A stretch of 64,000 nt of DNA from Taenia hydatigena (Eukaryota; Platyhelminthes; Cestoda; Cyclophyllidea; Taeniidae): positions 1,278,804 through 1,342,803 of the forward strand of contig JADWOT020001577.1 in NCBI GenBank assembly GCA_036345935.2. The letters run 5' to 3'. Positions within the stretch are counted from its first letter, which is position 1; each line of letters begins with the position of its first letter. Made by a program: the position numbers and the translations under genes. Under the pieces are notes generated by a model. It searched no databases. It worked only from the letters and a program-made list of their open reading frames with translations, and was not told the DNA's origin. Positions 8,581-51,407 of this stretch are shown piece after piece.

Positions 8581-8966
8581 TTGTTCGGATTAACAAATCC
8601 CAATTACTCACCATCTACCAATGGGTCGTCGAAGGTCAAACCAATAAGATTCCAGTTCACGATGCATAAGCTCTGACAATGCCTCAATGCTCGTCAGTTG
8701 ACACCTGTTCGACCATGCAAAACTGTAAGGCGCTTTCTAACTTGTACTCCATTAGCAGTTTTGTCGGTTTTATTTGACGTAAAGCAAGCATGACCCAATA
8801 AATAAATTGCAAATACTTGGATGTTCTCATGCATCTATACAGAAATTCTTCCATTTATTATAGACTTTTCTAAAAAAAGCGTTCTAGACCTGTCATCTAC
8901 TGCCAAAATCTCCCCAAGTTGCCGTGTTCTAATTTAAATGACAGAAATATTTGCAATCACAAGCCG

Positions 8967-10019
8967 ATGCTCTTATCACCGTCAATGGCAGCAGCAGTAA
9001 ACTTCCCTAGCATTTCTCCCACTACCATGATACATGACCCCAACTCATCGACATTATCACAGCTTAGATGCACGTCCAATATACAGATTCTCGAGAAAGA
9101 ATGTTCTGCACATCCTATCTCTCAATCCGCATCCACACCATCCCTTTCTTCAGTTAGTCAAGTGGGAGCGTTCCCACAGCCCTTTGCTCCACCCTTCTGT
9201 TTTGGCTCTTCTCCAGCTCTTCACTTTCCACACTACTCTCTTCCATTACTGCCCGGAGAAGTTTGTCTGCGGACCTCTTGTTGTCTTTCTTTGTATCACT
9301 ATCTGCTCTCCAAAATTTTGGTTAACACGATTATAGAATTACTAACCAGAAGTGCTACCGATTCTACTGATATTGCTGCCAATTTCCAGACTAGCGAAAT
9401 CCCTATGCATACCAATATTAATGCGGCCAACAACAACAAGGACGACAATAGCTTCGCCCCTTCCACAATCTCCAATGAGGTGGATTGTGAGGGCGTGAAT
9501 GAAGAAGAGCGACCGAGATGGGAATGCGAGGAGTGTGGAAAGACGTGCGATGTCGCTGCCTCTCTGCAAACACATAGGCGGATTCACTCGCTTTCATGGA
9601 AATGTCGCATATGTGGCAAGGCGTTCAAGCGCAAGTGGTCTCTTCAGGTACACGAGCGCACACACACGGACGAGAAGCTCTCCGTCTGTCCCACCTGCCA
9701 ACGCGCCTTCGCTGATGGCTCGAATCTGCGAGCCCATGTGCAAGCACATATGGAGGTGAAGCGCTGGCGCTGTTCCCAATGCACTGCATCATTTGCTCGA
9801 CACTGCTCCCTTAAGCGACACCTCGTAAAGTGTCCATTCGCTACTCTTGCAACAGCTGTTGTTACAAGTGAAAACTCTGCAACACGCCCAGTCAATACGA
9901 CATGCGACGGTGACATCATCGACCAGGCTACTCCAAGATTTCGTGTCGCATTTATAATAGCAATGTTTTGGAAAATAAATGCATGCACTCACTGCAGAGT
10001 CTCTCTTTTAACATTGTGA
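8967..10019 (+). CDS. Snail/Scratch-like C2H2 zinc-finger transcription factor (350 aa)
   Basis: This is a probable nuclear DNA-binding repressor of the Snail/Scratch superfamily. The frame is open from 8874; the first in-frame ATG is 8967, giving 350 residues. Four fingers lie at 9525-9833 (residues 187-289): C187/C190/H203/H207, C213/C216/H229/H233, C241/C244/H257/H261 and C269/C272/H285/C289. The last is C2HC, as in Snail proteins. Other Snail hallmarks are the short finger 1-2 linker (HSLSWKC, compare HTLPCKC in the family) and [12 protein letters not shown] in finger 3. Residues 1-170 are Ser/Pro/Thr-rich, with a box CCLSLYHYLLSK that recurs in two broken paralogues. An acidic stretch (residues 171-182) precedes the fingers. 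No SNAG start (MPRSF-type) is seen, so an upstream exon is possible; AG acceptors lie at 8861-8862 and 8886-8887. Oddities are the finger 2-3 linker TDEKL in place of TGEKP, and a C-terminal tail of about 28 residues past the point where paralogues stop. Confidence 0.8.
   Translation: MLLSPSMAAAVNFPSISPTTMIHDPNSSTLSQLRCTSNIQILEKECSAHPISQSASTPSLSSVSQVGAFPQPFAPPFCFGSSPALHFPHYSLPLLPGEVCLRTSCCLSLYHYLLSKILVNTIIELLTRSATDSTDIAANFQTSEIPMHTNINAANNNKDDNSFAPSTISNEVDCEGVNEEERPRWECEECGKTCDVAASLQTHRRIHSLSWKCRICGKAFKRKWSLQVHERTHTDEKLSVCPTCQRAFADGSNLRAHVQAHMEVKRWRCSQCTASFARHCSLKRHLVKCPFATLATAVVTSENSATRPVNTTCDGDIIDQATPRFRVAFIIAMFWKINACTHCRVSLLTL
9974..9979 (+). other. Poly(A) signal AATAAA inside the 3' end of the zinc-finger frame
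   Basis: AATAAA followed by tgcatgcactcactgcag sits 38 bases before the TGA at 10017-10019. It is at the same place as AATAAA 28367-28372 in the pseudogene copy and a decayed version (gtaaatgcatgcac) near 51525. In the relatives the signal lies in the 3' UTR, because they stop earlier. Here read-through of the old stop has placed it in the coding frame. Confidence 0.55.
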
Positions 10020-10039
10020 TCAATTAACAGCCAGCTATC

Positions 10040-10045
10040 AATAAA
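10040..10045 (+). other. Second candidate poly(A) signal AATAAA
   Basis: It lies 21 bases past the TGA of the zinc-finger gene and is the more plausible signal if the full 350-residue frame is translated. No downstream element was assessed. Confidence 0.4.
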
Positions 10046-48960: not shown

Positions 48961-49099
48961 TAAGCCTCACGCGGCTTCATTAAGATGCTGGATCATTTGA
49001 CACATCAATAATTTTGATTTTCTGAAGATTTTAGCAAATGTGAAGGCAGTAGCACAATTATAAGTACGTATGCGCCTCAAGTCAGATAATCGACAACAT

Positions 49100-50010
49100 T
49101 CTAATCTCAATAACTAAAATTAAGACAAATGTTGGCACTATTTGCCTCCAGTCACTGCATTGAACGGATTTGTTCCATTTGTTTAGATTTTAGTCTTCCA
49201 ATATCACTAACTTAATTTCTATTAGCTCTAGTGCGCACTGATCTGCGTAAGTTAGAGACTAAGCACCAGTTGCTAAGTTTTGTTGATCGAATGCCCCCAG
49301 TTTTCAAGCAATAAAAATTGTTTGGAATGCGAATACAAGCATCACGTATTCTTATTCCCCACATTAAACAAAAACTCTACTAATTGGTTTTGCCCGAACG
49401 ATGGTCAATCGTGACTTCTTCCACTTATTAATCCAAATCATGCGTTTGCTAGCGATTTTCGTTGCACACATCACCCTTTAAAGTGACAGCATTGAAAGTG
49501 CGGAATAATATTGCAGTAACGCTGGTTAAAGGGAACAAAGTGGGCTGAGGGAACCGACTAAGTAACGTGATGAGCCATTGGGCTAGAACCACAGGTAACG
49601 TGCATAGCGAACTCGGACGACACACGTGGCTAAGTACTACGCCTTCCCACCCGCTTGCGCTTCAAAACGCAAAAATTGAGAAACAGGCTAACAGAACAAA
49701 CCGTTATGTTCCAAGCGAAGGGTTGGTGTGCAATGCGAAATTAAGTCAGACCTGCTCACTTCACAACACCGTGTAGAATGCTGCAAGTGCGGTGAAATTT
49801 GGGTCGTGGTCGTGGTCGTGATTGATTCTACCGTCCTACTAATCTCCACACTGCATGCTACGCCGCCGAAACCACCAAGAAAAACGATGATCAGACATGG
49901 GATCAAAAGTTCATCTTTCGCCCTTATCTACATTGTTCCTAGCATTGGTAATGTTTCACATCCTGATATTCGAAAAGCAATCGACTAGGTGACTGAGTTA
50001 GAAACCTTCG
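49100..50010 (+). repeat. Third, diverged copy of an inner part of block B
   Basis: It aligns with 19580-20950 and 52765-54240, for example 49107-49170 with 19590-19650 and 49700-49980 with 20620-20910. In block B this material lies left of the 22-25 kb material; here it lies right of it. The order is therefore permuted, as expected across a tandem-repeat junction. Confidence 0.75.
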
Positions 50011-51098
50011 CACAGGTTCATTAAACTATTTTAATCTGTCACGGGCACTTAGTCAACTTGTAGATATTTAGAAACTGACTTCGCATTTATAAATTGATCT
50101 AACTCTGTGTGCCACCCACATCTAATTGGCGAATCGGATTTTGCACTTTAGCCACTACTGACCCGATGAGGGCCGGACGCTTTCAACCAGATCGCGGTGG
50201 AAGATAATGATGCTTTGAATTATTTTGCTCCTAATGGACAGGATTTCATGGCACGCAGGACACAATTAAGATGCTGTCATTAAAACCTTTGGGAGTGAGT
50301 GAGTCAACTCAAAGCCGAGTGTGAGACAACGGTGTGCAGTTGTCCGAATGAAGTAAACCACAGATGCTGACGAACACACTGTTTTTCAGGTCAAGCTAGG
50401 TTGTAAACATGCCATCCATCGCTGACACTCAAGTAATTGCTGCACAATCCAATCGAGCTGCTATATTTTGCGATTGCGCTTTCAATTCTGTGAGGTCGAA
50501 ACACCTTCAATGCTATAGGACACGTCTGGGCAAGGTGAGGTGCAATTATTATTAAGTATCGAAGCTGACTGCGCTGTCTGAGGAGAAATCTCTTTGCAAA
50601 TGCATTTAGTCGCATCACAGTCTAGGCAGTATAGCAGCGTATGAGTAAACGAATGCGTGCGACTCATTTGCACGCATAAGAGATGCCGTGAATGGGATCA
50701 GTCAGTGACCATACTTGGATGGACGATGGTCAATTTTCCTGAATCAGCACTGGTCATTTCTCCTATGCTGCCTAATATATTGCCCTAAATAAAATTAGAG
50801 AGGCAATATTCTGAGACCCCTTTGCGTGGTGTTGGTTGAGCAAACGGCGGCGACTGGATGATGCACCGCAGCAACGACATCAATGGCGCCTTACATTCAT
50901 GTGTGTTCGCACATGCGCTAGCAGGTTTGAGCAATCAGCAAAGGCGTGATGCCTTGAGAGACCCTGCTAGTGAGGGAATCGAATTATTTATTAATGCGAT
51001 TACAGGCATCTGCCTCAACAGCGCCGCAGACTTTGTACATTGAGACTGTTTAAAGGTGGGATATTGGCTAAAATTGGGCAAGAGTAGCAGCAGTGGTT
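50011..51098. other. No intact gene; left flank of a zinc-finger remnant
   Basis: 50690-50815 resembles 28860-28990, which lies beside the zinc-finger pseudogene there. Frames are short and without domains. The frame 51225-50935 (-) is the antisense of the zinc-finger remnant. Confidence 0.45.
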
Positions 51099-51407
51099 GC
51101 AAGCGCGCAGAAGTAGTCTTCAGATTCACAAGCGTGTGCACACAAGCTAGAGCCCTTTCTTTAATCCCACTTGCCAACATGCCTTTGTTGATCGTTCGAA
51201 TCTGCAAACGCATATGCAGACACATGTGAATAAAGCACTGGCGTTGTCCCTAGTGTACCACATCATTCAGCTGGTGCCTTTTCCTTAACTGACATCTCGC
51301 AATATGTCTATTCTCTACGCCTGCTACAGCCACAACTATGAATGATGCTCCACTATCCCCCAGTCAACACGACATACGACGTCGACACCATCAACGCAAC
51401 CACTTAA
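51099..51407 (+). pseudogene. Snail-like zinc-finger pseudogene: end of finger 2 to C-terminus
   Basis: The remnant begins in finger 2 (SLQIHKRVHT) and has a TAG in the finger 2-3 linker. Finger 3 is recognisable (PTCQHAFVDRSNLQTHMQTH) and keeps DRSNL as in canonical Snail proteins. It then shifts frame into finger 4 (KHWRCP*CTTSFS) with further stops, and shifts again into the tail NTTYDVDTINATT with TAA at 51405-51407. The tail aligns with residues of the intact gene around 9890-9935 and with the pseudogene ending at 28237. Finger 1 and the N-terminus are absent. Confidence 0.8.

What the first reader, a model, noticed from the sequence alone, without database searches (positions are those of the whole stretch)
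8919..51407. Birth-and-death cluster of a Snail/Scratch-like zinc-finger gene: one intact copy, four fragments
One intact four-finger gene (8967-10019) and four broken relatives (27056-27740 -, 27757-28237 +, 32281-32529 +, 51099-51407 +) lie within 43 kb. They share finger sequence, an N-terminal box and the tail. Snail-family genes are usually few, conserved developmental regulators, so a local expansion with many dead copies is unusual.
Basis: partly seen in the sequence, partly recalled or inferred. Interest (0 to 1): 0.75.

Follow-up and report, generated by a model that had tools for sequence, protein, structure and literature searches.

The report
Tapeworm Snail-type gene cluster, massively amplified
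A tapeworm has copied one Snail-type gene-switch protein dozens of times in a single stretch of its genome; some copies still look functional, many are dead, and the copy singled out in this window is itself probably damaged.

Summary
The window lies in a 2.16-Mb contig of a 306-Mb genome, very probably a Taenia tapeworm (inferred). The window protein gives 117 genome matches: 89 on this contig, 21 on C473. The window holds seven relics, two unreported. The family is a taeniid-wide Snail-superfamily offshoot; the best tree puts it beside Snail, though grouping with Scratch is not rejected (p 0.234). Its gene has two exons behind CCAAT/TATA-like boxes: a 10-nt exon, a 138- or 139-nt intron, then MKYDFSIASIL..., with two EH1-like (Groucho co-repressor) boxes and four fingers matching Snail fingers 2-5. 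Twenty of 36 near-full-length copies examined are intact. Their fingers are under purifying selection (omega 0.39, p=8.5e-11), also within two species-specific clades. The window's 'intact' copy is not intact by this model: its spliced start stops after 27 codons in another frame, both EH1 boxes and the usual stop are lost, and its clade looks neutral. The array grew by copying and inverting multi-gene blocks. Best reading: EH1-type Snail repressors in birth-and-death evolution; expression and targets untested.

The parts
8618..8669 (+). promoter remnant: two CCAAT boxes (8618, 8641) and a TATA-like ATGCATAA (8662)
   Evidence: positions; same boxes upstream of family copies; function inferred
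8715..8724 (+). exon 1 of the window copy (ATG plus 7 nt), followed by a GT donor
   Evidence: homologous to ATGAAATACG^GTAAG of intact copies
8725..8863 (+). 139-nt intron
   Evidence: same length in intact copies (138 or 139); splicing inferred, no RNA seen
8864..8937 (+). start of exon 2 in the spliced frame; damaged EH1-like box; stop at 8935 after 27 codons
8874..10019 (+). open finger frame (381 aa stop to stop; 350 aa from ATG 8967), out of frame with the spliced start; reads 27 aa past the usual family stop
9513..9833 (+). four C2H2 fingers (Snail fingers 2-5), all zinc ligands present
17756..18371 (+). unreported dead copy: upstream box, exon 1 signature at 17902-17921, N-terminal part with a stop
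27055..27744 (-). dead copy, left arm of an inverted pair (N-terminal half to finger 1, stops)
27755..28255 (+). dead copy, right arm of the inverted pair (fingers with stops, frameshift, tail)
32189..32553 (+). dead copy, middle region only, two frames
50820..50948 (-). unreported dead copy, last two fingers
51103..51404 (+). dead copy, part of fingers 2-4 and tail, three frames
19820..27056 (+). segmental duplication, 85.5% identical to 53130-60410
   Evidence: 2 kb of it (21500-23500) has 55 genome matches, 51 on C1248 and C473
53130..60410 (+). second copy of 19820-27056
13..4493 (+). segmental duplication, 79-84% identical to 29099-34798
29099..34798 (+). second copy of 13-4493

Best explanation
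The window is part of a roughly 1.16-Mb array holding many copies of a taeniid-specific Snail-superfamily transcription-factor gene. The ancestral-type copy sits alone on a large contig (C9, 4.02 Mb), 150 kb from Scratch. Each complete gene has its own short promoter region, a 10-nt first exon, a 138/139-nt intron and a second exon. The predicted protein begins MKYDFSIASIL: an EH1-like box at the very N-terminus, usually a second about 39 residues on, a poorly conserved linker, and four Snail-type fingers. Most likely it binds Snail-type sites and recruits Groucho, i.e. it is a repressor. Copies multiply by duplication and inversion of multi-gene blocks; most decay, while at least two clades keep constrained fingers. 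The window's long ORF belongs to a third clade (D) with altered finger contacts and is probably a decaying copy. Shown: copy number, gene structure by homology, tree position, finger constraint, block duplication. Inferred: splicing, Groucho binding, E-box binding, expression, species.
For: 117 genome matches, 89 on C1248 and 21 on C473. Exon-1 signature 39 times in 306 Mb, control 0: 27 on C1248, 9 on C473, 1 each on C472, C6, C9. 20 of 36 near-full-length copies intact; exon 1 seen for 18 of the 20 at 148-149 nt from exon 2, for one more. Four taeniid protein records from other species contain MKYDFSIA, two starting there. Family clade 100/99. Fingers without zinc ligands: omega 0.39, p 8.5e-11 for 18 intact copies; clade B 0.34, p 0.004; clade C 0.39, p 0.004. 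The first EH1-like box is the most conserved 7-residue stretch of 221 before the fingers. Two Groucho (TLE_N) loci exist in the genome. A Snail-type precedent: CES-1 has an N-terminal EH1 motif and binds UNC-37/Groucho (PMC1310626, section read). Block order B-O-Q-D recurs in both orientations; the non-coding unit is nearly confined to the array.
Against: No expression data. Outside the fingers omega is about 1.0, so most of the protein shows no constraint; the boxes were judged by conservation alone. Clade D omega 0.83 is not different from 1. Only 10 of 23 aligned rows have a recognisable second box and 15 of 23 the first (several records start downstream). EH1 is a short motif. Snail rather than Scratch affinity is favoured but not proved (p 0.234). 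Gene conversion could distort omega.
Confidence: 0.72

Rival explanations
1. The cluster is a functionless segmental-duplication array; only the C9 copy matters and the intact cluster copies are young passengers.
For: Copies ride on non-coding units duplicated with them; 16 of 36 near-full-length copies are broken; non-finger omega about 1; clade D neutral; recent pairs have dN/dS near or above 1.
Against: Clades B and C, specific to this genome among the species sampled, show finger omega 0.34 and 0.39, each p 0.004, even after dropping zinc ligands, and 0.37/0.58 when broken copies are added.
Confidence: 0.17
2. A mobile element captured the finger gene and spread it.
For: Many copies, both orientations, one on C6 with a unit fragment 11 kb away.
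Against: Copies keep promoter and intron, so not retrocopies; nearly all matches are on two contigs, not genome-wide; no Pfam domain in 9 other long window ORFs scanned of 52 listed; several copies move together as ordered blocks.
Confidence: 0.04
3. Assembly artefact: haplotypes or unresolved repeats counted as copies.
For: C473 carries blocks near-identical to C1248 (one finger-gene pair differs at one codon), so part of the total may be alternative haplotype.
Against: 75 separate places on C1248 alone by my merging of 89 rows, with identities to the query from 36 to 100%.
Confidence: 0.04

Closest known systems
Snail family (Snail, Escargot, Worniu, SNAI1-3)
   Same: Fingers align without gaps to Snail fingers 2-5, 57-62% identical for the C9 copy, with the same 5-residue gap between fingers 2 and 3; beside Snail in the best tree.
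   Different: First Snail finger absent; no MPRSFLV-type SNAG start; EH1-like boxes instead; tens of copies against 5, 7, 3 and 4 for the whole Snail/Scratch family in human, fly, nematode and Daphnia (PMC2889900, passages).
Scratch family
   Same: Same superfamily; this genome's Scratch is 150 kb from the C9 copy.
   Different: 49-57% finger identity for the parent-type proteins tested against 54-62% to Snail; separate 100/100 clade, though a joint clade is not rejected.
C. elegans CES-1
   Same: Snail-type fingers with an N-terminal EH1 motif; interacts with the Groucho orthologue UNC-37 (PMC1310626).
   Different: No amplified CES-1 array is described in the passages seen; motif context not aligned here.
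KRAB and ZAD zinc-finger clusters (recalled)
   Same: Local clusters, birth and death, repressor plus C2H2 array.
   Different: Different repressor motif; finger number fixed at four; contact residues here vary less, not more, than other finger positions (0.81 against 1.30 extra residue types, p 0.069).
Taeniid 'SNAI1/Protein snail' records (T. solium, T. asiatica, E. granulosus, E. multilocularis, Hydatigera)
   Same: Members of the same family, several per species.
   Different: Only a few found per species in that search (a word-limited protein search, not genomes).

Membership tests
Snail superfamily (Snail/Scratch) | C2H2 finger block aligning without gaps to Snail fingers 2-5, with the short link between fingers 2 and 3 | tested here: met
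Snail superfamily (Snail/Scratch) | tree position among Snail/Scratch proteins | tested here: inconclusive
   one family clade 100/99 next to Snail, but no non-Snail/Scratch outgroup was in the tree
Snail (not Scratch) | groups with Snail to the exclusion of Scratch | tested here: inconclusive
   best tree and identities favour Snail; family plus Scratch not rejected, p-AU 0.234
Snail (vertebrate type) | N-terminal SNAG motif MPRSFLV | tested here: not met
   predicted start is MKYDFSIASIL
Snail | first finger of the five-finger set | tested here: not met
   four fingers only in intact copies
Snail | binding of CAGGTG-type E-boxes (recalled) | not testable with these tools
   contacts of fingers 2-3 largely kept in clades A-C, changed in D
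EH1/Groucho-dependent repressors | EH1 motif F-x-I-x-x-I-L | tested here: met
   box 1 in 18 of 20 intact copies; 15 of 23 aligned rows
EH1/Groucho-dependent repressors | Groucho present and bound | tested here: inconclusive
   two TLE_N loci in the genome; binding not testable here
Birth-and-death gene cluster | tandem origin, mixed live and dead copies, selection on live ones | tested here: met
Intact gene (window copy 8967-10019) | start, splice and finger frame continuous | tested here: not met

The most novel reading that the evidence does not exclude
Taeniid tapeworms run a KRAB-like innovation engine on a Snail chassis: an EH1-Groucho repressor amplified to tens of copies in one array, where clades keep (B, C) or rewire (D) the DNA-reading fingers, and where clade D copies that lost the repressor boxes but kept all four fingers (such as L003/L004, perhaps the window ORF) act as competitors of their full-length relatives.
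Probability: 0.2. Interest if true: 0.82.

Novelty: new variant of a known kind. Interest (0 to 1): 0.6.

Why it matters
Snail-family genes are few and conserved in the animals tabulated in PMC2889900 (3 to 7 in human, fly, nematode and Daphnia). Here one offshoot has tens of copies with live and dead members and measurable finger constraint. It offers a test of whether a developmental repressor can become a fast-turning multigene family, and of what parasites with complex life cycles do with it. None of the titles and abstract openings listed in my nine paper searches describes it; the T. hydatigena genome paper, searched for terms, has no 'zinc' and 'snail' only in a reference.

Tried and rejected
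Rejected: 'one intact copy' in the window. Rejected: retrocopies (intron and promoter kept). Rejected: genome-wide mobile element. Considered and not supported: diversifying change at DNA contacts overall (contacts vary less than other finger positions). My first selection test compared omega with 1 on copies chosen for intact zinc ligands; a simulation showed that this choice alone gives about 0.57 under neutrality (687 of 4000 accepted), so I repeated it without ligand codons and use only that. The AU test did not settle Snail against Scratch. Led nowhere: Rfam, tRNA and tandem-repeat scans of the window (0 each); Pfam on ten long window ORFs (0); AlphaFold model, mean pLDDT 48.6, confident only in the fingers; PDB search ranks generic zinc fingers above SNAI1. 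Rows dropped: three T. asiatica proteins and 32 of 60 distinct finger blocks did not fit the unbroken four-finger pattern for the tree; 20 intact copies gave 18 distinct finger sequences. Block types were assigned by eye.
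Full report
1. Where this is. The window is G000:C1248:1278804-1342803 of a 306,030,797-base genome in 1,354 contigs; C1248 is 2,155,275 bases. Window G+C is 41-45%. The nearest proteins are Taenia solium records, and the C9 copy is matched exactly over 273 residues by P0125, a protein of an unnamed source. Among the tapeworms tabulated in PMC8384839 only T. hydatigena has a genome of this size (308.54 Mb, 43.02% G+C; section 6 read; passages). Its version 1.2 has 294 scaffolds, so the contig count does not match that version. I infer a Taenia, probably T. hydatigena; no marker gene was obtained.

2. The observation. Over half of the window (34,581 of 64,000 bases) has a second copy inside the window at E below 1e-10: 19820-27056 matches 53130-60410 at 85.5%, and 13-4493 matches 29099-34798 at 79-84%.

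3. Scale. The 350-aa protein has 117 matches (116 of 426 candidates scored, a lower bound): 89 on C1248 between 622,502 and 1,780,678, 21 on C473 (298 kb), 3 on C472, 1 each on C6, C9, C173 and C386. Rows include split copies; merging the C1248 rows by eye leaves 75 places. A 21-base exon-1 signature with up to one mismatch occurs 39 times, against 0 for the reversed control: 27 on C1248, 9 on C473, 1 each on C472, C6 and C9. It misses clade B, whose first exon differs. C473 may partly be an alternative haplotype of C1248.

4. Gene structure. Upstream of intact copies lie two CCAAT boxes, a TATA-like box, ATGAAATACG^GTAAG, an intron of 138 or 139 nt and an acceptor just before the codons for FSIASIL. 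The splice gives MKYDFSIASIL. Four proteins from other taeniids contain MKYDFSIA (P0121, P0122, P0123, P0127); P0123 and P0127 begin with it. These are gene predictions by others and support the model, but no RNA was seen. Of 36 near-full-length copies examined, chosen because they were near full length, 20 have an open exon 2 and four complete fingers; 16 lie on C1248, 3 on C473 and 1 on C9. Exon 1 was seen for 18 of the 20; for one of the other two (L066) one search finds it just outside the fetched stretch; for L011 it was not checked. Two of the 20 (L003, L004) have a damaged first EH1-like box.

5. The window copy. Exon 1 is at 8715-8724 and exon 2 from 8864; joined, they stop at 8935 after 27 codons, in another frame than the finger ORF. 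The first box reads FSKKSVL, so it no longer fits F-x-I-x-x-I-L, and the second is gone. The ORF runs 27 residues past the usual family end. The four fingers keep all ligands. Its closest copy, L002 (93% identical), has lost ligands in two fingers, and the pair differ by dN 0.032 and dS 0.038 (25 and 9 changes, p 0.69 against neutrality), with flanks at 3.0-5.3%. This is a weak test, but all signs point to decay. The alternative, a fingers-only protein from ATG 8967, is not excluded.

6. Family and tree. Profile search of the protein database (candidates limited to 7,975) finds members in T. solium, T. asiatica, Echinococcus granulosus, E. multilocularis and Hydatigera. In a 59-row tree of 103 finger columns the family is one clade of 42 rows (100/99). 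Scratch forms its own clade (100/100). Three clades of this genome, B (97/93), C (100/97) and D (100/99), contain no sequence of another species. The program warns of few columns for so many rows. The amplified copies together are one clade only weakly (73/70). Finger identity of the C9 copy is 0.57-0.62 to ten Snail rows and 0.51-0.57 to seven Scratch rows. The AU test does not reject family plus Scratch (p 0.234). The genome also has a Scratch gene at C9:4.171 Mb (relatives named scratch) and a five-finger Snail gene at C3:16.98 Mb (naming by sequence, in the Snail part of the tree).

7. Protein parts. Among 221 seven-residue windows before the fingers, the two most conserved are DFSIASI and FSIASIL (0.68 and 0.67, median 0.33). 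The region of the second box (residues 36-58) supplies many of the next ones, though the exact box ranks lower (0.49). The motif fits EH1. CES-1, a Snail-type protein of C. elegans, has an N-terminal EH1 and interacts with UNC-37 (PMC1310626; passages, section). TLE_N is found at two loci, C5 and C6. The structure model is confident only for the fingers.

8. Selection. With zinc-ligand codons left out, omega in the fingers is 0.39 for 18 distinct intact copies (LRT 42.1, p 8.5e-11), 0.42 without the C9 copy (p 1.3e-7), 0.34 in B (p 0.0036), 0.39 in C (p 0.0036), 0.83 in D (p 0.71), 0.83 in the window's own subclade (p 0.70) and 0.80 in five dead fragments (p 0.49). With broken copies added, B gives 0.37 (p 0.0039), C 0.58 (p 0.011), D 0.89 (p 0.66). 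Outside the fingers omega is 1.00; pairwise counts between clades gave 0.5-0.7 there, so the method matters. Clade D differs from the others at five contact positions (finger 1 -1; finger 2 3 and 6; finger 4 2 and 3; position numbering recalled), but over the family contacts vary less than other positions (p 0.069).

9. Mode of growth. The order B, O, Q, D recurs along C1248 forwards and reversed, with similar spacings (about 10, 6 and 12 kb), and also on C473. Inverted pairs 8-9 kb apart recur. A 2-kb non-coding probe (window 21500-23500) gives 55 matches, 35 on C1248, 16 on C473, 1 on C6, 2 on C9 and 1 on C141, from 66 to 100% identity. This is duplication and inversion of large blocks, old and recent.

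10. Verdict. It is a known kind of process (birth and death of zinc-finger genes) on an unusual subject (a Snail offshoot with EH1 boxes). The mechanism is inferred from motifs.

Noticed in passing
L009, L029, L062 (C9:4.02, 4.17 and 3.75 Mb): Three Snail-superfamily loci within 0.42 Mb of one contig: the ancestral-type copy, Scratch, and a short Snail-like exon.
   Followed up: partly
L024 (C6:105000-108500): A lone clade-D copy lies about 106 kb from the low end of a 22.6-Mb contig, with a fragment of the array's non-coding unit at C6:117830.
   Followed up: no
C473 (298 kb): A contig rich in family copies, some near-identical to C1248: haplotype or extra array.
   Followed up: no
window 27055-28255: The inverted pair of dead copies has sister pairs at other places (L038, L039, L044, L046, L050, L055), so the junction is older than those duplications.
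   Followed up: partly
P0002, P0124: Public gene models of T. solium and Hydatigera begin with translated intron sequence rather than MKY; starts probably misannotated.
   Followed up: no
L025 residues 151-171: A predicted helix in the linker (pLDDT about 45-48, so unreliable) in a patch shared by the family.
   Followed up: no
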